Origin: Candidatus Mcinerneyibacteriota bacterium
Lineage (GTDB): Bacteria > AUK180 > JAQVHJ01
Assembly: GCA_030630935.1 (NCBI GenBank)
Contig: DAOVMD010000127.1
Coordinates: forward strand, 1 to 7,972
Reading direction: 5' to 3'
Length of the DNA stretch: 7,972 nucleotides
The notes beneath the pieces are model-generated. The model ran no database searches and was not told the DNA's origin. It saw nothing but the letters and a program-made list of their open reading frames with translations. Made by a program: the position numbers and the translations under genes. Positions 1-7,972 of the stretch are shown one piece after another (position 1 is the stretch's first letter; each line of letters opens with the position of its first letter).

Positions 1-1850
1 ATGTAAATAATGGAGTTTTAAATTGGAGTTACTCAACGGAATTGCTCTCCAATCCAGACTGCTATAATTATCGATTTAACTATATAAAATCGAATGATAA
101 CGAAATATTTATTTTTCAGCAAGAAATGGATAGATATAGTAAAAATCAGGATTGTATTCATATAACATTTCCACCTCCTAACCCACCGACGGTATCATTT
201 TTAAGAGATGATATTAATCCTCCACCGATTATAGAAAGATTTGAAATGCCCTCGGAAAATTTTTACAAATATGACTACGCGCAATATTATTTCAAGAAAG
301 ATTCATCGGGAAAAATACATTTTCTTGAACTGTATAAGCATTACAGCGGCGGATATAAGACGAAGTTTTATCTCGGAACCTTTAATAACGAAACGTACGA
401 ATTTCAAAAGAGAGAAATTGGGAATTTGGATTTTAATAGCTTTGCCGATTTCGATATTGATAATGACGGGAATATCTATGTGTTTTATAAATCAGGTGAG
501 TATATATATCCCACTGGAAATGATGAAGTTTCAATTGTAAAAATTGAACAGGAAACTTTACCCGAACTAAAAGTTGTTTTTGATTTTAAAAACGATAAGA
601 AAAAACCTGAAAATTATTTGCCGATAAAGGATGATCTTATCCCCTTTACAATTAAAATCGTTCCTGATGATGAAGATAAGTTCTTTAAGACAGAAGAGAA
701 ATATGATGTTAAACTTTTGATTAGAGATACAAATGGTAATGAATATTCTCAGGGTGCAAAGGATAAGTTTGCATTTGAAAATAAGACATACGAATATACT
801 GTTAATGACCTTTCTTTAGATGAAGAATCCGGTGAAATAAATTTAATTCCGGATAATTATTATGGAGTTGCACAGATTTATGCTCAAATTGAAGGACAGA
901 AAAATGCAAATACTATTGAGATTCCAATTGATACTGATAATGATATAATTGCAGATAGTTGGGAAAATACGTATAGTAATGTTTCTGTCGGTATAGATGA
1001 TAGAGAAATAGATAATGAAACATTAACAGGTGTATCAGGTGGAGAAGTAGGAGATGGATTCAAGGTATTTCAAGAATATAAGGGATTATTAAGAAATGAT
1101 AGTGATGCTCAAAGTCATTTTAGATTAAATCCAGATCAAAAAGAAATATTTATAGTAGTTAAAACAGCTCCTCCATGTAGTATAGATTCTTTTACAAATC
1201 ACTTAAGTGATTTAAATATTGTTTTTCAAGAACTTAGTACAAAATCTTTGTATATTGATTCAGATGAAAATTATAGATTTATAAAGGGTTCTACTGAATT
1301 TAAATATAATGAAGGACTTCATACAGGATCAGGTTTAAACCAAAACGGATTGTTTAAAGATAATCCCCCATTTTTTTCTGATTATCCTAAGTTTGCTTTT
1401 AATAGAAGACCAGAAATTGCAAATGGAGGAGGGATTATTTATATGTATCACACAACGATTATGAATATTTTTTCAGATGCAAATCTCGAAAATGAACGCA
1501 ATACTTGTACATATTTTACCACAGTAGAAGGTAGAAGAAAAAGAATAGTGTTCAATAATACTGACTTAGATGATGATAATGATGATTATATTGGTGATGA
1601 TATAAATATTTGGGATCTTGTAGATGATAAAGGTGATAATAAAATATTTGATATAAGTATGTCTAATTATTGGGAATTATATAATTATGCATGCTTACAT
1701 GAAATGGGGAATATATTTGCGTTAAAAGATAAACACCCTTCTGAAGGAATAAATACAATTATGATTGGTGGTTCATTTTCAAAATATCGGAAATTTTATT
1801 ATTCTGAAACAGAGAAATCTGCTATAAAAACATATAGAGAAATGAGGTGA
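1..1850 (+). CDS. Beta-propeller-like protein with degenerate metzincin-like C-terminal domain (copy 1, 5'-partial)
   Basis: The gene runs off the left edge. The frame is open from base 3 and matches the middle of the long gene at 3027-6347, so the TTG at 42 is internal and not a start. About 615 codons are visible. Bases 3-566 encode propeller-like repeats (for example DIDNDGNIYVFYKSG) nearly identical to copy 2. Then come an Ig-like beta region (about 567-925), an Asp-rich loop DTDNDIIADSWE (930-965), and a protease-like domain with GDGFKVFQEYKG (about 1050-1085) and RLNP. At 1698-1736 the zinc helix reads HEMGNIFALKDKH. The metzincin pattern is HExxHxxGxxH, so the second His is Asn and the Gly is Ala. 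The third ligand position is Asp, which some metzincins tolerate. MIGG follows as a possible Met-turn. I infer a secreted protease homologue that has probably lost zinc catalysis. It ends at TGA, 4 bp before the partner gene, which suggests co-translation. Confidence 0.85.
   Translation, partial: VNNGVLNWSYSTELLSNPDCYNYRFNYIKSNDNEIFIFQQEMDRYSKNQDCIHITFPPPNPPTVSFLRDDINPPPIIERFEMPSENFYKYDYAQYYFKKDSSGKIHFLELYKHYSGGYKTKFYLGTFNNETYEFQKREIGNLDFNSFADFDIDNDGNIYVFYKSGEYIYPTGNDEVSIVKIEQETLPELKVVFDFKNDKKKPENYLPIKDDLIPFTIKIVPDDEDKFFKTEEKYDVKLLIRDTNGNEYSQGAKDKFAFENKTYEYTVNDLSLDEESGEINLIPDNYYGVAQIYAQIEGQKNANTIEIPIDTDNDIIADSWENTYSNVSVGIDDREIDNETLTGVSGGEVGDGFKVFQEYKGLLRNDSDAQSHFRLNPDQKEIFIVVKTAPPCSIDSFTNHLSDLNIVFQELSTKSLYIDSDENYRFIKGSTEFKYNEGLHTGSGLNQNGLFKDNPPFFSDYPKFAFNRRPEIANGGGIIYMYHTTIMNIFSDANLENERNTCTYFTTVEGRRKRIVFNNTDLDDDNDDYIGDDINIWDLVDDKGDNKIFDISMSNYWELYNYACLHEMGNIFALKDKHPSEGINTIMIGGSFSKYRKFYYSETEKSAIKTYREMR
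3..566 (+). repeat. Constant propeller block, copy 1 (paralogue of 3912-4469)
   Basis: This segment aligns with 3912-4469 at an offset of 3909 bp with no indel until about 547. There copy 1 carries 6 extra bases, giving IEQETLPE against IETLPE. Identity ends abruptly just after the codons for LPE. By hand count about 15 of 175 encoded residues differ. The block is the shared part of otherwise strongly diverged long genes. Confidence 0.9.
1844..1850 (+). promoter_or_regulatory. Shine-Dalgarno site of the copy 1 partner gene
   Basis: GAGGTGA overlaps the TGA stop of the upstream gene and lies 4 bases before the ATG at 1855. The overlap supports translational coupling of the two genes and fixes the start of the partner. 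Confidence 0.75.
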
Positions 1851-1854
1851 ACGA

Positions 1855-2775
1855 ATGAAAAAGTTTATTTTTACAATGATTTTAGTTTTATTTTTTACTT
1901 TAATTAATTATTCAGAGAGTAAAGTATTAAGTTTTGGAGAGGAGAATGATTTCGGATTAACAATTCATTCTGAAAAAAATCAATATAAAAGGGGAGAAGA
2001 GATATTCTTAGTTTTTAAGATAAAAAATTTATCTTTAAAAATACTTGAAATACCTCCATTTTTACCTATTGATAATAGACTTCCAGACTTACAGGTTAAA
2101 CTTGAGGTGTTAAATAACTTTTCCAATAAAATAGAAAATGATTATTATAAAAATAATCCATACAGCGGAATATCCGGAGGTAAAGGTGAATTATTAGAAC
2201 CTAAAGAAACAGTTTTTATTACAATAAATTTAACTGATTATTATAATATTGAAGAGTTAAATGAAGTTGGAATCATAGAATTTAGGTTAAACTACGCACT
2301 TTGTGAACTTGAAAGGCTTTCACATTTTAGTGGGTATGTTAATGTTATTGGTTATATAAATACCAACACAGTCCGTATTTTTTTTAATATGGACCAAGAA
2401 CTTATTCAATCTCAGATTCGAGTAGAGCCGCATAAGTGGAATGTTAACTGGGAGGATATGGAAGGGGATGGAGTGTTTACTGTTTGGATAGAGACGATCA
2501 AAGGTTATTCGGTTGAAGATGTGAAGCAGGATACCATTTTATTAAATGGCACTCTGAAACCTGAAGATATAAAAATTCTTCCCAAATCAGGAAATAATAA
2601 AGAAAAGGTTTTACAATTAAAATTCAAGAAGAAAGACGGAATCCAATACCTTGGTGAATTAAAGACCGGGGAGAAGAAAACCATCAATATCAGTGCTCAA
2701 CTTACAGATGAAAAATGGTTCGTAGGTGAGACCGAGATTGAGATCGTTGGAAAGAAAAACGAAGAAAACAAGTAA
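1855..2775 (+). CDS. Secreted two-domain beta protein, partner of the metzincin-like protein (copy 1)
   Basis: The protein has 306 residues. A signal peptide occupies about residues 1-22 (MKKFIFTMILVLFFTLINY, then SES); no Cys follows it, so it is not a lipoprotein. Residues about 25-165 form a beta-rich domain beginning LTIHSEKNQYKRGEEIFLVF. This recalls Ig-like domains of the BsuPI proteinase-inhibitor type; the resemblance is from memory and weak. Residues about 180-302 form a second beta domain with EPHKWN, GYSVEDV, TILLNGTLKPE and LKFKKKD. That pattern recurs in secreted proteins of many bacteria and archaea. The same C-terminal domain ends the partner of copy 2 at roughly 40% identity, while the N-terminal halves do not align by eye. 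The ATG is set by a GAGGTGA site overlapping the preceding stop. It probably forms an operon with the upstream gene. Binding to or regulating that protein is inferred from position only. Confidence 0.85.
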   Translation: MKKFIFTMILVLFFTLINYSESKVLSFGEENDFGLTIHSEKNQYKRGEEIFLVFKIKNLSLKILEIPPFLPIDNRLPDLQVKLEVLNNFSNKIENDYYKNNPYSGISGGKGELLEPKETVFITINLTDYYNIEELNEVGIIEFRLNYALCELERLSHFSGYVNVIGYINTNTVRIFFNMDQELIQSQIRVEPHKWNVNWEDMEGDGVFTVWIETIKGYSVEDVKQDTILLNGTLKPEDIKILPKSGNNKEKVLQLKFKKKDGIQYLGELKTGEKKTINISAQLTDEKWFVGETEIEIVGKKNEENK

Positions 2776-2790
2776 TAGGAAAAAGGAATA

Positions 2791-2820
2791 TTCGTATTTT
2801 CGTAATTACGAAAATACGAA
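2791..2820 (+). repeat. Perfect 30-bp palindrome downstream of the copy 1 partner gene
   Basis: TTCGTATTTTCGTAA (2791-2805) is followed directly by its exact reverse complement, TTACGAAAATACGAA (2806-2820). It starts 15 bp after the TAA stop. There is no U-tract, so it is not a typical intrinsic terminator. Folded as RNA it could still end or stabilise the transcript. It could also be a protein-binding site or a dispersed palindromic repeat. Confidence 0.85.
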
Positions 2821-2851
2821 ATTGAATAACACCGCATATTGAAAAAATATC

Positions 2852-2880
2852 TTGATTCTTTTTTTTAAATATGTTAATCT
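2852..2880 (+). promoter_or_regulatory. Possible sigma-70-type promoter upstream of the copy 2 module
   Basis: TTGATT (2852-2857) and TAATCT (2875-2880) are separated by 17 bp containing a T-run. They lie about 150 bp before the TTG of the next long gene. Such matches arise easily by chance in AT-rich DNA, and the promoter consensus of this organism is unknown. No good equivalent is seen before copy 3. Confidence 0.3.
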
Positions 2881-2965
2881 AATTATATGAAATCATTTAT
2901 TCAAAAAACAGCCTGCCCTGGTGAGCAATTAGAGAATTAGGGTGCACGATGTCCTGCTATTTGTC

Positions 2966-3026
2966 ACTTATGACTTAAAAAAGATATCAGAGAGCAAAGA
3001 ACCAAGTAAGATTTCCCTTTGGAATT
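2966..3026 (+). repeat. Conserved leader upstream of the copy 2 long gene
   Basis: This noncoding segment matches 7469-7529 with 6 mismatches in 61 and no indel, at the same 4503-bp offset as the coding parts of copies 2 and 3. It contains an in-frame stop TAA (2976-2978), a frame that then stays open, and TTTCCCTTTGGAATT directly before the TTG. No Shine-Dalgarno is present. Further upstream, AATTAGGGTG (2935-2944) is also shared (7449-7458), offset by a small indel. Confidence 0.8.
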
Positions 3027-3046
3027 TTGAAGAAATATGATATAAT
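3019..3046 (+). promoter_or_regulatory. Extended -10 promoter-like sequence across the start of the copy 2 long gene
   Basis: TTGGAA (3019-3024), a 16-bp gap, then TGATATAAT with the perfect hexamer TATAAT at 3041-3046. It is kept in copy 3 (7522-7549). If active, transcription would begin near 3053, inside the called reading frame. Translation would then need a later start such as ATG 3135. The conservation may simply reflect recent duplication. Confidence 0.3.
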
Positions 3047-6000
3047 ACATCTAAAGGTATTATTAGAAGATGGAAATACGATTGAAACATTCTATAATAT
3101 TCCGCAACTTAATAATAAAGATCGGGTTAAGTCAATGGGTTTAACTGAAGGAGTTGAAATCTTTGATGATACGGCAGATTATATCGTTGACTGTGCAATT
3201 AAAACACTTGATGATGGAAGTATAATCTTCGGGTATACCGTAGTTTCAGAAGATCAGATAAGGTTTAAAAATATTACTTTTCAAGCCGATGACCCTATTA
3301 TTTCAGATTTAATCTCAATCACAAATGAGCACAGTAACGGTTCAATTTGGGATCCTCGAATATCAAGTTCAGGTGAGATTTATTATTATAAAATCTGGTC
3401 TCCTCCTTACGAGATTTATGTAAGTTCAAATTGGCCTGAGAGTTGGAGTAGGGAAGGTGCCTATAGTTTGAAAAGTAAATTTGAAAATGGCACCCCCTTA
3501 TTTTCCGAAGATGATTTTTTTAAAGTAAGAATGGAGGAGAACCTGGAGTGCCATTGTTATTGGTTTTGGCCTTTCCCGCCAATATATGAATATGAATATA
3601 ATGGATACTATAAACTATTTAAAGAAAAGGGTTATGAAGGGAAGAGTATATATAGCTATAATAATACCTTTGCATTTGATGGAAATAAAACTATTTATGT
3701 AACCGTTAATAGCATCGGTCATACTAAAAAAGAAAAGTGCCATGGTGATGCAGGGAAAGGCTGGGAAGTAACTGAAATAGTTCCTAGATCAGAGAACTAT
3801 GAAATCTCTCTTCCGGGTCAGAATCTTGAATTTGATTACCATGGTAATTATATAACAGATGTAGGGATAATAGATAATGTTGGAAAAGATTCTCAAACAA
3901 TATCCTTCTATGTAAATAATGGAGTTTTAAATTGGAGTTACTCAACGGAATTGCTCTCTAATCCAGACTGCTATAATTATCGATTTAACTATATAAAATT
4001 GAATGATAACGAAATATTAATTTTTCAGCAAGACAGGGATAGATATAGTAAAAATCAGTATTGTATTCATATAACATTTCCGCCTTCTAATCCACCGCCG
4101 GTATCATTTTTAAGAGATTATACTGATCAAAAACCGATTATAAAAAGATTTGAAATGCCTTCGGAAAATTTTTACAAATATGACTTCGCGCAATATTATT
4201 TCAAGAAGGATTCATCGGGAAAAATACATTTCCTTGAACTATATAAGCATTACAGCGGAGGATATAAGACGAAGTTTTATCTCGGAACCTTTAATAACGA
4301 AACATACGAATTTCAAAAGAAAGAAATTGGGAATTTGGATTTTAATAGCTTTGCAGATTTCGATATTGATAATGACGGGAATATCTATGTGTTTTATAAA
4401 TCAGGTGAGTATATATATCCTACTGGAAATGATGAAGTTTCAATTGTAAAGATTGAAACTTTACCCGAATTCCATACTGAGGTTTATTTTGAATATCCGG
4501 AAAACGAATTCTATCCAGAAGAACCATTCAAATATGTTCCTAAACCGAATTCAGAAATTAAAATCCATATTGAAATTAAAGATGAAAATGATAATTTAAT
4601 TGATGAAAGTTATAATGGGCATGTTACTTTAACATTACTTCCAACTCCGCCCTTTGATGCCGTTTATAGTCATACTTTGGTAACACCGCAAAATCCAGCT
4701 AGTGTCGGTTTATTAAAAGGTTTAACACGGGAACCGCCTGAACCCATAACTCTTGAAATTAAAGAAGGAGATATACTAAATTTAAATGAAACATTCATTA
4801 AGGTTTATGATCACTTGTCAAATGCAGAATTGGAAGTTGCAGTTGTTTTGATTAAAGGTGAAGACCGATTTAATTTAGATAATGTAAAAAACCAAATTTA
4901 CAAAGACGGCGAAACTAATCCTGATGGAATACCGGATTTATGGGAACACTATCAGATAACAGAATTGAGAAAACGCGGATTCAGTAATACATTTTCTGCT
5001 AAAAAAACGATTACATTAACTTATAAAGAGGGAACTAAAGTAATTGAAGAAAAGATTGATATCTGGGATCCGGCTCCTTTAACTAGAGAATGGGATCTTG
5101 ATCCTATCCGTAATTACTGGCAGAAAAATGCGAATGCTGAAGATGCCTGGTTACCTAAAGGAGAAGGTTTAAGAGCAATTGATGAGTGGAGAGGATATTC
5201 TGAAACTGAAAATGGTCCATTGAAAGAAAGATTGAATTGTTTTGAAATTGAGAAATTTGTAAAATTCGGCGAGTCAGTTACTGTTATATATGATGATAAT
5301 GAAACGGACATTTATAATCCTCGTGATATTTATTGCAATAGTGAACTAAATGGAAATAAGGGAGCATTAGATTTAATCAAAGAAAGATTAAAGGTTAAAT
5401 ATATATTTATTGATGATTTTACAGGTGAAGAGAGTAAAAAAGAAAAGGCATATCCATTTTTAGGAGAATTCCCGTTAGATGGTAATGCTCTTATAGAAAC
5501 CAATTATAGGTTTGCTCAAAGACATATTTTAGAATTGAGAAGTTTTCGTGATGAAGACGATGAACACAAAAATTATTATCTAAATGAAAATCTGCCAATA
5601 GCTCTAAATAGGGGTTATTATTATAAATTTACTTTCCCATTTGATATTAATTTAGATGATAAGCTTTCAAAAGAGATAATTTATAAAAAGGCTCCAAATG
5701 AATATGATGAAGATATTAAAGAAGAAACTCCTTCATATAATGAAAGTGGGAAATTAGTTTCAGGGGAAGGAACGCAATTTGGTTTTAATAAAGGAGAAAA
5801 TAATTTACATACTTCAGTAATTTATATAGGATCAATATGCAATTTATATAAGATTACTAAGAAAACAGAAGGAAATAAAACTATAATTTATAACACTATG
5901 TGTACTGTATTAAAGGATGATGTATCTGTTGTATCTAACCCATATATTGATGAAGTGAGGGATGTTAACTATCGTGAGATTCCTACGGAATATAATTTGG

Positions 6001-6347
6001 GTGAAGAAGGCTATCTTGTTTTCAAGGCATATGATAAAACAAAAAGATATTGGTATAATATTGCAGAATGGAATATTAAAAAGGCTCCCGGGAATAAAGA
6101 AATCAAAGAGTATTTCCTGAAGCAAGCATTACTCATATCAAGAATTGCTCTTCACGAGCTTGGCCACTCTTATGGATTAGATCATCCTAATAAAGATGAG
6201 TATTCAAATATAATATTGAATAATGATCCAAATAATAATCCTGAGTTATTTACACCAATGGCAGTAACTCAAAGCATATTTTTAGGGGAATTTTATAAAT
6301 CTGGTGAAATTAGCAATGAAAATTTTTCTTTTAATTGGGCAAAATAA
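3027..6347 (+). CDS. Beta-propeller-like / Ig-like / metzincin-type zinc metallopeptidase (copy 2, complete)
   Basis: The product has 1106 residues if TTG at 3027 is used. Residues 1-477 look like a beta-propeller, with repeated strand motifs such as DPRISSSGEIYYYK and DIDNDGNIYVFYKSG. They also contain Cys-His clusters (C175-H-C177 and C238-H). Residues about 478-620 form an Ig-like beta region, and NPDGIPDLWE (631-640) is a calcium-type loop. GEGLRAIDEWRGY (712-724) opens the protease-like domain. The zinc motif HELGHSYGLDH has H1043, E1044, H1047, G1050 and H1053, and TPM1078AV is the Met-turn candidate, so the enzyme is probably active. No signal peptide, ATG or Shine-Dalgarno is seen at the start, and an in-frame stop lies at 2976. 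The first in-frame ATG is 3135 (MGLTEG). The gene may be 5'-truncated. The partner gene follows after 16 bp. Confidence 0.87.
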   Translation: MKKYDIIHLKVLLEDGNTIETFYNIPQLNNKDRVKSMGLTEGVEIFDDTADYIVDCAIKTLDDGSIIFGYTVVSEDQIRFKNITFQADDPIISDLISITNEHSNGSIWDPRISSSGEIYYYKIWSPPYEIYVSSNWPESWSREGAYSLKSKFENGTPLFSEDDFFKVRMEENLECHCYWFWPFPPIYEYEYNGYYKLFKEKGYEGKSIYSYNNTFAFDGNKTIYVTVNSIGHTKKEKCHGDAGKGWEVTEIVPRSENYEISLPGQNLEFDYHGNYITDVGIIDNVGKDSQTISFYVNNGVLNWSYSTELLSNPDCYNYRFNYIKLNDNEILIFQQDRDRYSKNQYCIHITFPPSNPPPVSFLRDYTDQKPIIKRFEMPSENFYKYDFAQYYFKKDSSGKIHFLELYKHYSGGYKTKFYLGTFNNETYEFQKKEIGNLDFNSFADFDIDNDGNIYVFYKSGEYIYPTGNDEVSIVKIETLPEFHTEVYFEYPENEFYPEEPFKYVPKPNSEIKIHIEIKDENDNLIDESYNGHVTLTLLPTPPFDAVYSHTLVTPQNPASVGLLKGLTREPPEPITLEIKEGDILNLNETFIKVYDHLSNAELEVAVVLIKGEDRFNLDNVKNQIYKDGETNPDGIPDLWEHYQITELRKRGFSNTFSAKKTITLTYKEGTKVIEEKIDIWDPAPLTREWDLDPIRNYWQKNANAEDAWLPKGEGLRAIDEWRGYSETENGPLKERLNCFEIEKFVKFGESVTVIYDDNETDIYNPRDIYCNSELNGNKGALDLIKERLKVKYIFIDDFTGEESKKEKAYPFLGEFPLDGNALIETNYRFAQRHILELRSFRDEDDEHKNYYLNENLPIALNRGYYYKFTFPFDINLDDKLSKEIIYKKAPNEYDEDIKEETPSYNESGKLVSGEGTQFGFNKGENNLHTSVIYIGSICNLYKITKKTEGNKTIIYNTMCTVLKDDVSVVSNPYIDEVRDVNYREIPTEYNLGEEGYLVFKAYDKTKRYWYNIAEWNIKKAPGNKEIKEYFLKQALLISRIALHELGHSYGLDHPNKDEYSNIILNNDPNNNPELFTPMAVTQSIFLGEFYKSGEISNENFSFNWAK
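3912..4469 (+). repeat. Constant propeller block, copy 2 (paralogue of 3-566)
   Basis: Near-identical to 3-566, ending after the codons for LPE. Downstream DNA of the two copies no longer aligns by eye, so the boundary falls between the propeller-like region and the Ig-like region. The upstream limit of identity cannot be seen because copy 1 is cut by the window edge. Confidence 0.9.
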
Positions 6348-6350
6348 AGA

Positions 6351-6357
6351 AGGAGGT
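6351..6357 (+). promoter_or_regulatory. Strong Shine-Dalgarno site of the copy 2 partner gene
   Basis: AGGAGGT stands 6 bases before ATG 6364. It shows that this ATG is the start, not the in-frame GTG at 6304, which lies inside the upstream gene and would hide the signal peptide behind 20 extra residues. Confidence 0.85.
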
Positions 6358-6363
6358 AATAAA

Positions 6364-7275
6364 ATGCAAAAAAGTAAAATATTGTTTTTAATGACGATTG
6401 CTGTAGTTAGTATTTTAATCTGTCAAAGTTTTGGAACAAATCGAACTGACCAATATCAGGATACTTTTAAATTTGAGATGTTTTCAATAAAAAAGTATTT
6501 TGATTATAAAAATGATGATGTTATGTTATTTGGAAAGATTGAACTTTTAGTAGATGAAGATAAAACATATGAGTTTTATAGATTTGCTTCAAGAGGGAAT
6601 GTAATAAAATATATAATAAAAGAAAAAAATACTAATAAGGTAAGTTCTATTAAAGAGCCCAGACCTCGTGTAGGTATTGTTTCATATGGTTTGAATTATC
6701 ACTATCAAATGCGTGATGCTTCTTCTAACACAAGAACTAGTTTAAAATATTACGATATTTGGGAATATGATATAGGTGGCGGAAGAGCCGAATATTACAA
6801 GGGAGATTATACGGTAACAGTAAAGTTCCCGGTAATGCAAGACAATAGCGAAGGTATTAATGAAATATTATATTACTTGATATTGGAAGGGATTGAATAT
6901 AGTGTTTTAGATTCTGCAGAATTTTTTAAGGGTAAGATTGTATTCGAACCACAAAAATGGAATTTTCAATGGCAGGAATCTGAACCTGAAGGTTATATTA
7001 ATTGTTTCATTGGTAATCTTGATTCCGGAACGGTTGAAGATATTGTTCAAGATGAAATTTGGCTTAGCGGCACTTTGAAACCTGAGACAATTAAGGTTAA
7101 AAATCATCATGCCGGTTTTGACGGGAAGGTTTTACATTTGCAATTCAAGAAAAAGGATGTAATAAAATTTGTAATTTTTGATCGTGATCTCCCATACAAT
7201 GTAAATGTCCAGGCTAAATTGAAGAATGGTAAAATTCTCAATGCTGAAACAAAAGTTGAGATTCTAACAAAGTAA
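6364..7275 (+). CDS. Secreted two-domain beta protein, partner of the metzincin-type protease (copy 2)
   Basis: The protein has 303 residues from ATG 6364, chosen for the AGGAGGT site and the N-terminus it creates. Residues 1-24 are a signal peptide (MQKSKILFLMTIAVVSIL, then ICQSFG). Cys20 is preceded by Ile, which does not fit a lipobox. Residues about 30-185 are beta-rich (ending with GDYTVTVKFPV) and do not align by eye with the N-terminal half of the copy 1 partner. Residues about 186-303 form the shared C-terminal domain: EPQKWN, TVEDIVQDEI, LSGTLKPE (GTLKPE from residue 236), LQFKKKD, then a final strand. The gene lies 16 bp after the protease gene, so one transcript is likely. A chaperone, inhibitor or surface-anchoring role is possible; nothing in the sequence decides between them. 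Confidence 0.87.
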   Translation: MQKSKILFLMTIAVVSILICQSFGTNRTDQYQDTFKFEMFSIKKYFDYKNDDVMLFGKIELLVDEDKTYEFYRFASRGNVIKYIIKEKNTNKVSSIKEPRPRVGIVSYGLNYHYQMRDASSNTRTSLKYYDIWEYDIGGGRAEYYKGDYTVTVKFPVMQDNSEGINEILYYLILEGIEYSVLDSAEFFKGKIVFEPQKWNFQWQESEPEGYINCFIGNLDSGTVEDIVQDEIWLSGTLKPETIKVKNHHAGFDGKVLHLQFKKKDVIKFVIFDRDLPYNVNVQAKLKNGKILNAETKVEILTK

Positions 7276-7294
7276 CTCAGGCTTCCAGCCTGAG
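7276..7294 (+). terminator. Stem-loop directly after the copy 2 partner gene
   Basis: CTCAGGC (7276-7282), loop TTCCA, GCCTGAG (7288-7294): a perfect 7-bp G+C-rich stem beginning at the base after the TAA stop. No T-tract follows, so Rho-independent termination is uncertain. It may instead protect the 3' end or belong to a dispersed repeat with the next hairpin. Confidence 0.5.
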
Positions 7295-7303
7295 AAGGAT
7301 CAA

Positions 7304-7316
7304 AGGCAAGATGCCT
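7304..7316 (+). repeat. Small hairpin AGGCA-AGA-TGCCT
   Basis: A 5-bp stem with a 3-base loop lies 9 bases after the preceding hairpin. The phrase GGCAAGATGCCTGTGTTAC looks like a short dispersed intergenic repeat that I recall from several environmental bacterial genomes; this is recollection, not a search. Confidence 0.35.
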
Positions 7317-7343
7317 GTGTTACATTTCGAAGAGAAAACATTA

Positions 7344-7378
7344 GATTGCCGCGGTCACTATGTTCCCTCGCAATGACA
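7344..7378 (+). repeat. Dispersed-repeat-like element (reverse strand begins TGTCATTGCGAGG)
   Basis: Forward ends are GATTGCCGCGGTCAC and CCCTCGCAATGACA; the termini ATTGC and GCAAT are inverted. The reverse complement resembles a widespread small intergenic repeat of the form CATTGCGAGG...GCAATC known from diverse bacteria. Single copy in this window. It is probably a non-autonomous element with no coding role. Confidence 0.4.
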
Positions 7379-7464
7379 AAATAGAGTCATCGAACAAACC
7401 CAACATAACTCATTGACTTTTTCCCTTAAAATAAAAAATATTCCTTAGAATTAGGGTGGCGGCC

Positions 7465-7478
7465 TATGACTTATGACT
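7465..7478 (+). repeat. Tandem heptamer TATGACT x2
   Basis: Two exact copies of TATGACT sit at the left border of the conserved leader of copy 3. The matching place in copy 2 (near 2964-2976) has TCACTTATGACTT, so one heptamer is altered there. The tract marks where the upstream homology of the modules fades. Confidence 0.55.
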
Positions 7479-7529
7479 TAAAAAAGATATCCGGGAGCTA
7501 AGAACCTGTTAAGATTTCCCTTTGGAATT
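7469..7529 (+). repeat. Conserved leader upstream of the copy 3 long gene
   Basis: Matches 2966-3026 with 6 mismatches and no indel, including the in-frame TAA (7479-7481) and the TTTCCCTTTGGAATT before the TTG. It again has no Shine-Dalgarno. Confidence 0.8.
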
Positions 7530-7549
7530 TTGAAGAAATATGATATAAT
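7522..7549 (+). promoter_or_regulatory. Extended -10 promoter-like sequence across the start of the copy 3 long gene
   Basis: TTGGAA (7522-7527), 16 bp, then TGATATAAT with TATAAT at 7544-7549: the same arrangement as at 3019-3046. Functional only if the true translation start lies further downstream, for example at the conserved ATG of MGLTEG. Confidence 0.3.
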
Positions 7550-7972
7550 ATATTTAAAGGCATTATTAGAAGATGGAAATACGATTGAAACATTTTATAA
7601 TATCCCGGAACTTAATAATCAAGATCGGTTTAAGTCAATGGGTTTAACTGAAGGAGTTGAAATCTTTGATGATACGGCAAGTCGTATCTTTGACTGTGTA
7701 ATGAAAACAATTGATGATGAAAGTATAAAATTCGGATATACAATTATTGGAACTACAACTGCAGAAGAAGATCAGATAAGGTTGAAAAATATTACTTTTC
7801 AAACCGATGATCCTGTTATTTCAGATTTAAACTCAATCCCTAATGAACACAGTAACGGTTCAATTTGGGATCCTCGAATTAGTTCTTCCGGAGAGATTTA
7901 TTATTATAAAAACTGGTGTCCTCCATATGAGATTTATATAAGTTCAAATTTACCTGAGAGTTGGAGTAGGGA
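7530..7972 (+). CDS. N-terminal part of a third propeller/metzincin-type protein (copy 3, 3'-partial)
   Basis: The frame from TTG 7530 is open to the right edge and gives 147 codons. It begins MKKYDIIYLKALLEDG and aligns along its whole length with residues 1-142 of the copy 2 protein at roughly 82% identity by eye, including IWDPRISSSGEIYYYK. Five extra codons are present (GYTIIGTTTAEEDQI against GYTVVSEDQI). As in copy 2, there is no ATG, Shine-Dalgarno or signal peptide at the start, and an in-frame stop lies in the leader. The C-terminal domain is outside the window, so whether it is an active protease is unknown. Confidence 0.85.
   Translation, partial: MKKYDIIYLKALLEDGNTIETFYNIPELNNQDRFKSMGLTEGVEIFDDTASRIFDCVMKTIDDESIKFGYTIIGTTTAEEDQIRLKNITFQTDDPVISDLNSIPNEHSNGSIWDPRISSSGEIYYYKNWCPPYEIYISSNLPESWSR

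What the first reader, a model, noticed from the sequence alone, without database searches (positions are those of the whole stretch)
1..7972. Tandem array of a mosaic protease-plus-partner module with constant ends and variable cargo
Three copies of the same two-gene unit follow each other. The propeller half of the long gene is ~91% identical in copies 1 and 2. Beyond 566/4469 the protease part and the N-terminal half of the following partner gene are strongly diverged, and the C-terminal domain of the partner is recognisably shared again. Protease type and partner N-domain therefore change together across a gene boundary, as in recognition or inhibitor pairs. Homogenised front parts with old divergence behind suggest gene conversion or cassette exchange. 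I know of no named system with this layout; that is recollection, not a search.
Basis: partly seen in the sequence, partly recalled or inferred. Interest (0 to 1): 0.75.

Follow-up and report, generated by a model that had tools for sequence, protein, structure and literature searches.

The report
Polymorphic exported peptidases with spare cassettes
An uncultured bacterium keeps one complete gene for an exported peptidase plus its partner (probably its inhibitor), followed by start-less spare copies with swapped business ends, a layout like known bacterial toxin-immunity systems but with matching DNA on both sides of the swappable part.

Summary
The window is one whole contig of an 80%-complete genome bin. 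It lies in a tandem array of units: carrier half, C-terminal peptidase, then a partner gene. The same arrays occur in two other genera of the same rare phylum, one of them on a 60-kb contig. Within units a block of about 1.3 kb, spanning the gene boundary (end of the peptidase plus the partner's N-domain), is swapped between constant flanks. Peptidase and partner N-domain co-vary over 14 modules (Mantel r 0.76, p 1.5e-4 with within-genome permutation).

In each genome one or two copies have a signal peptide and start. The others, including both 5' ends in this window, are 5'-truncated. Peptidases fall into metzincin-like and transglutaminase-like types; partners carry their own signal-peptide-like N-terminus. 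One partner N-domain folds like a protease-inhibitor or propeptide Ig sandwich.

Best reading: a polymorphic toxin/immunity-type system with orphan spare cassettes, as in CDI, Rhs and MafB. Unusual features are homologous arms on both sides of the cassette, only peptidase cargoes, and exported partners sharing one C-domain. Delivery, toxicity and inhibition are untested. Nothing here shows live switching.

The parts
1..548 (+). 3' part of the constant carrier of unit 1 (its 5' part lies on another contig)
   Evidence: 95% nt identity to 3910-4457, 92% aa; contig C189 begins here
549..1850 (+). variable cargo 1: metzincin-like domain with degenerate zinc motif HEMGN at 1698-1712; DxDxDxxAD.WE motif from about 927
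   Evidence: sequence; aligns with G004 cargoes that read HExGHxFGLxH; divergence from unit 2 starts here
1855..2775 (+). partner gene 1: signal-peptide-like start (1855-1920), variable N-domain (1921-2391), constant C-domain (2395-2772)
   Evidence: N-domain modelled as Ig-like sandwich
2776..2965 (+). spacer between units 1 and 2; contains a 13-bp palindrome at 2791-2820
2966..4457 (+). 5'-truncated carrier of unit 2: no signal peptide and no original start, in-frame TAA upstream; first possible start TTG 3027
   Evidence: homology to the complete 5' end on C190 begins near here; ORF list
4458..6347 (+). variable cargo 2: metzincin-like, HELGHSYGLDH at 6153-6185
   Evidence: Pfam Peptidase_M10 E 8.6e-4, below the gathering score; same type in G001 C263 and C255
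6364..7275 (+). partner gene 2: signal-peptide-like start, variable N-domain (6430-6912), constant C-domain (6919-7272)
7276..7468 (+). spacer between units 2 and 3
7469..7972 (+). 5'-truncated carrier of unit 3; its last 141 nt are identical to the end of C190, where the assembly breaks

Best explanation
A polymorphic toxin/immunity-type system whose effectors are exported peptidases. One complete gene per locus makes an exported carrier with a C-terminal peptidase. The tightly following gene makes an exported partner whose N-domain is the matching inhibitor (immunity) and whose C-domain is common to all partners. Downstream lie 5'-truncated spare units, each with another peptidase plus its own partner. 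Homologous recombination between carrier sequence on one side and partner C-domain (plus, in G004, the FlgD-like gene) on the other moves a peptidase-plus-partner-N-domain cassette into or out of the complete gene, so attack and protection change together. Partners in spare units probably also stay useful as protection against siblings carrying other versions. Shown: the layout, missing 5' ends, two-sided mosaic, co-variation, intact reading frames and purifying selection. Inferred: enzymatic activity, inhibition by the partner, target, export route (T9SS-linked genes are present), and that switching happens in living populations.
For: One complete 5' end with signal peptide versus truncated copies: G000, G001, G004. 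Two-sided cassette: G004 Ca vs m1 is mostly 87-99% nt through carrier codon ~450, 33-64% through partner codon ~155, then 88-94%; dS 0.18 in carrier and 0.17-0.38 in partner C, saturated between. Co-variation: Mantel r 0.76, p 5e-5 free, 1.5e-4 within genomes; transglutaminase-like cargo with the same partner type in four modules, on more than one carrier. Truncated units are mosaics of the two complete G004 carriers. Selection: orphan cargo pair dN 0.10, dS 0.23, 0 of 300 bootstraps with dN>=dS; partner C omega 0.02-0.06. Lower G+C in cassette than flanks, clearest in G001 (0.22-0.24 vs 0.38-0.40). Partner N-domain model (pLDDT about 70-84 in its core) matches AsaP1 residues 23-155 (Z 9.8) and the B. 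subtilis proteinase inhibitor 3isy over nearly its whole length (Z 7.3). T9SS sorting domain and SprA-like protein in all 7 genomes.
Against: No activity, toxicity or expression data. The fold matches are middling and the Ig sandwich is a common fold. Partners look exported, unlike most immunity proteins, which sit in the cytoplasm. All partners share a C-domain, unusual for immunity families. No known delivery domain on the carrier. Cargo 1 has lost a zinc ligand. A G001 partner has an in-frame TGA. In G004, m2 and Ca cargoes are 83% identical but their partner N-domains only 38%, so pairing is not rigid. Two 5'-truncated G001 copies have a perfect sigma-70-like site upstream (one listed, one read by eye), so 'silent' is unproven.
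Confidence: 0.62

Rival explanations
1. Secreted digestive or surface peptidases with dedicated trans-acting inhibitors or pro-domains, diversified for substrate range or to escape recognition, and not aimed at competing bacteria. Recombination and spare cassettes work as above, but the partner is a maturation or self-protection factor, not immunity against siblings.
For: All cargoes look like peptidases and partners look exported; the partner N-domain resembles the N-terminal part of AsaP1, a secreted zinc metalloendopeptidase, and the proteinase inhibitor 3isy; T9SS-type secretion context.
Against: Spare 5'-truncated units with their own partner, extra partner genes (C97 3b; G004 m3b) and low-G+C cassettes are the usual signs of toxin/immunity loci (PMC4927057).
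Confidence: 0.25
2. Ordinary tandem duplication with decay: truncated units are dying copies left by unequal crossing-over, homogenised by chance gene conversion, with no function.
For: Missing starts, in-frame TAA upstream of units 2 and 3, HEMGN in cargo 1, in-frame TGA in a G001 partner.
Against: Long intact frames in the truncated units; dN well below dS in an orphan cargo pair and omega 0.02-0.06 in partner C-domains; cargoes differ between units far more than duplicates could, and the same cargo/partner types recur in other genera.
Confidence: 0.08
3. Truncated units are expressed as independent, unexported proteins with their own job, so there is no expression site or reserve.
For: Sigma-70-like sites upstream of truncated units in G004 and G001.
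Against: No ribosome site or signal peptide seen by eye at the truncated starts; promoter-like counts are close to shuffled expectation in the window and G004 regions; breakpoints differ between genomes.
Confidence: 0.05

Closest known systems
MafB/MafI of Neisseria (PMC4287609)
   Same: Signal-peptide carrier with constant N-part and variable C-part; downstream mafB-CT cassettes, some without initiation codon, each followed by mafI; near-identical CTs have identical mafI.
   Different: No DUF1020; here partners carry a signal-peptide-like start and share a constant C-domain; cargoes are peptidases; the cassette has homologous DNA on both sides.
CDI (CdiA-CT/CdiI) and Rhs orphan modules (PMC4927057)
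   Same: Displaced toxin/immunity pairs in tandem arrays downstream of the complete gene; orphan fragments keep homology to the upstream gene; recombination can deploy them (shown for Rhs in Salmonella, as reported there).
   Different: No TpsA, CdiB, FHA or Rhs features found; no transposase or integrase seen between units; exported partners.
TANFOR polymorphic toxins with T9SS neighbours (PMC7073777)
   Same: Polymorphic C-termini, signal peptide, neighbouring proteins with T9SS sorting domains, genomes with T9SS.
   Different: No TANFOR domain reported by the libraries searched; different host phylum; nucleases common there, peptidases here.
Peptidase toxins of polymorphic systems: Tox-MPTase1-5, Tox-TGase (PMC3482391)
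   Same: Zincin-like and transglutaminase-like C-terminal toxins are known cargo types.
   Different: These cargoes resemble M10/M12 metzincins only weakly (Pfam E 0.0004-0.04, below cut-offs); membership of the named Tox families was not tested.
AsaP1 N-terminal part (2x3a) and B. subtilis intracellular proteinase inhibitor (3isy)
   Same: Ig-like sandwich matching partner N-domain 1; one belongs to a secreted zinc metalloendopeptidase, the other is a proteinase inhibitor.
   Different: 9-15% identity; fold-level resemblance only. That AsaP1 residues 23-155 are its propeptide is from my own knowledge.

Membership tests
Polymorphic toxin system (general architecture) | Constant N-terminal carrier with exchangeable C-terminal effector domain | tested here: met
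Polymorphic toxin system (general architecture) | Cognate small gene directly downstream, co-varying with the effector | tested here: met
   Mantel r 0.76, p 1.5e-4 within genomes; gaps of 4-23 nt or overlap between the two genes
Polymorphic toxin system (general architecture) | 5'-truncated spare cassettes near a complete gene | tested here: met
Polymorphic toxin system (general architecture) | Effector is toxic and downstream protein neutralises it | not testable with these tools
   needs expression experiments
MafB/MafI | DUF1020 (PF06255) N-terminal domain | tested here: not met
   Pfam scan of the complete G001 and G004 carriers and the C190 5' end gave no such match
CDI / two-partner secretion | TPS secretion domain and CdiB partner | tested here: not met
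   no Pfam or NCBIfam match in carriers; no CdiB-like gene seen by eye among ORFs of neighbouring stretches
Rhs | RHS/YD repeats in the carrier | tested here: not met
   no Pfam or NCBIfam match
Metzincin metallopeptidases (M10/M12) | HExxHxxGxxH/D and Met-turn | tested here: inconclusive
   met in cargo 2 and in most G004 cargoes; cargo 1 reads HEMGN; Pfam and PDB profile hits sub-threshold; cargo model failed
Transglutaminase-like (G001 cargo) | C-H-D triad | tested here: inconclusive
   CG..., DH/NH.F and YD[PT]S motifs read by eye in all four; Pfam Transglut_core E 0.14 in one
T9SS substrate | C-terminal sorting domain on the effector | tested here: inconclusive
   not reported on the carriers scanned; present on the neighbouring FlgD-like protein; SprA-like protein in 7 of 7 genomes
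Anti-phage defence (PADLOC) | match to a defence model | tested here: not met
   no match up to E 0.1

The most novel reading that the evidence does not exclude
A cassette-switching locus in which a peptidase domain and its inhibitor domain, lying in two different genes, are exchanged as one unit by recombination through homologous arms on both sides, giving a candidate phylum a programmed reserve of matched peptidase/inhibitor pairs.
Probability: 0.3. Interest if true: 0.78.

Novelty: new variant of a known kind. Interest (0 to 1): 0.6.

Why it matters
If true, it extends toxin/immunity-type cassette loci to a rare candidate phylum and to peptidase/inhibitor pairs that would act outside the cytoplasm. 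It also shows a two-armed design: both ends of the swapped block are homologous, so effector and protection can be exchanged together in one event without deleting the rest of the array. The three genera give natural replicates for testing how matched pairs co-evolve.

Tried and rejected
Structure of cargo 1: pLDDT 28, unusable. Partner C-domain: pLDDT mostly 28-49, no conclusion. First genome-contig scan with the window's carrier: none confirmed; with 19 partner C-domains: too diverse to search; with four of them: only two other MAGs, RS_12_30 (G004) and STE_202 (G001). Only two short peptide patterns were scanned, so absence elsewhere is weakly tested. Viral contigs: no relative. PDB sequence search with the partner: nothing. 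Promoter scans: near chance in the window and G004 regions; in L023 the scan found 8 sites against 3.3 expected, including one perfect site. Paper search for AsaP1: no relevant hit. Anti-phage defence considered and dropped. Order of C190, C189 and C97: cannot be settled, because contigs end in shared carrier sequence (141 identical nt at the ends of C190 and C189), so whether cargo 1 or cargo 3 sits in the complete gene is unknown.
Full report
What was checked. The window is the complete contig C189 of a genome bin (G000; 3.16 Mb, 471 contigs, 80% complete). Positions 1-548 match 3910-4457 at 95% nt and 92% aa, and similarity ends abruptly just beyond. A second pair, 2966-3454 and 7469-7972, gives the 5' halves of units 2 and 3. 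The partner genes at 1855-2775 and 6364-7275 share a C-terminal domain (36-39% aa) but not an N-terminal one.

The surroundings change the picture. Contig C190 (L006) ends inside the same carrier but holds its complete 5' end: a signal-peptide-like start (MLKRLCFTVLLIIIFSISVFS...) after a small secreted protein with a T9SS-type sorting domain. Contig C97 (L007) starts in the carrier's 3' end and carries a third cargo (HEIGH) and two partner genes with nearly identical C-domains but different N-domains. In the window, units 2 and 3 lack the first ~80-90 residues found on C190, with an in-frame TAA upstream of the homology. They are 5'-truncated.

The same arrangement occurs elsewhere. Seven genomes of this phylum are held; four have the partner C-domain and three have arrays. 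In G001 (same family, other genus; MAG STE_202 by contig match), C263 has the sorting-domain gene, a complete 1233-residue carrier-peptidase, a partner and a truncated carrier. C255 has two more modules and another truncated carrier. In G004 (other family; MAG RS_12_30), one 59.6-kb contig holds a complete unit followed by two truncated units, each followed by partner(s) and a sorting-domain gene. C151 holds two more cargo/partner pairs, and C79 holds a second complete 5' end that runs off its contig. The breakpoints of truncation differ between genomes but are shared by units within G000 and within G004.

A two-sided cassette. In G004, units Ca and m1 are mostly 87-99% identical in DNA over the first ~450 codons of the truncated gene, fall to 33-64% through the rest of the peptidase and the first ~155 codons of the partner, and return to 88-94% to the partner's end. 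dS is 0.18 in the carrier for that pair and 0.17-0.38 in partner C among G004 units, but saturated between. Truncated carriers m2 and m3 are patchworks of the two complete G004 carriers. The swapped block is poorer in G+C than its flanks, most clearly in G001 (0.22-0.24 against 0.38-0.40) and weakly in the window.

Co-variation. Over 14 modules with both genes, similarity of cargo and of partner N-domain correlate (r 0.76; p 5e-5 with free permutation, 1.5e-4 when permuted only within genomes). The transglutaminase-like cargo is always followed by the same partner type in four G001 modules, on more than one kind of carrier. Pairing is not rigid: G004 m2 and Ca have 83% identical cargoes but 38% identical partner N-domains. 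Modules are related, so these p-values are not those of independent samples.

Function. Cargoes read as metzincin-like (HExxHxxGxxH; Pfam matches below cut-off) or transglutaminase-like (triad read by eye). Cargo 1 of the window reads HEMGN and may be inactive. The model of partner 1 is usable for its N-domain only (pLDDT about 70-84 in its core). It is an Ig-like sandwich whose best structural matches include residues 23-155 of AsaP1, a secreted zinc metalloendopeptidase (Z 9.8), and the B. subtilis intracellular proteinase inhibitor (Z 7.3, 114 residues aligned of 117). RbmA and others score similarly, so this is a hint, not proof, of inhibition.

Selection. A pair of cargoes from truncated units (m2, Ca) has dN 0.10 and dS 0.23, with no bootstrap of 300 reaching dN>=dS. 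Partner C-domains in G004 have omega 0.02-0.06. Truncated units are therefore kept in working order or refreshed from working copies, which argues against simple decay despite isolated lesions (HEMGN; a TGA in one G001 partner).

Comparison with known systems. Complete gene plus downstream start-less cassettes with cognate partner genes is what is reported for MafB/MafI (PMC4287609) and for CDI and Rhs orphan modules (PMC4927057). Zincin and transglutaminase toxins are known cargo types (PMC3482391), and T9SS-linked polymorphic toxins have been proposed (PMC7073777). Defining carrier domains of MafB, CDI and Rhs were not found. It works like these systems in layout but is not filed as a member of any. 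Differences: homologous sequence on both sides of the swapped block, partners that look exported and share a C-domain, and a sorting-domain gene within the G004 repeat.

Limits. All genomes are fragmented bins; contig order in G000 is unresolved; no expression, activity or population data; the carrier fold is unknown; wider distribution was tested with only two short patterns.

Noticed in passing
window 2791-2820: A perfect 13-bp-stem palindrome (TTCGTATTTTCGTAATTACGAAAATACGAA) in the spacer between units 1 and 2, called terminator-like on the minus strand.
   Followed up: no
L023 5307-5309: In-frame TGA in the partner of the transglutaminase-like module of G001, where the relatives read on; could be a real lesion or a sequencing error.
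   Followed up: partly
L023 3002-3030 and about 5858-5886: Perfect sigma-70-like site (TTGACA-17-TATAAT) upstream of a 5'-truncated carrier; a near-identical stretch precedes the next truncated copy, read by eye.
   Followed up: partly
L007 577-1509: Second partner gene with no peptidase in front; C-domain nearly identical to the first, N-domain diverged.
   Followed up: partly
all seven phylum genomes: SprA-like translocon protein and 24-42 T9SS sorting-domain matches each.
   Followed up: no
L061 4147-4980: REP-type (Y1) transposase-like gene, named by eye, close to the second complete carrier 5' end of G004.
   Followed up: no
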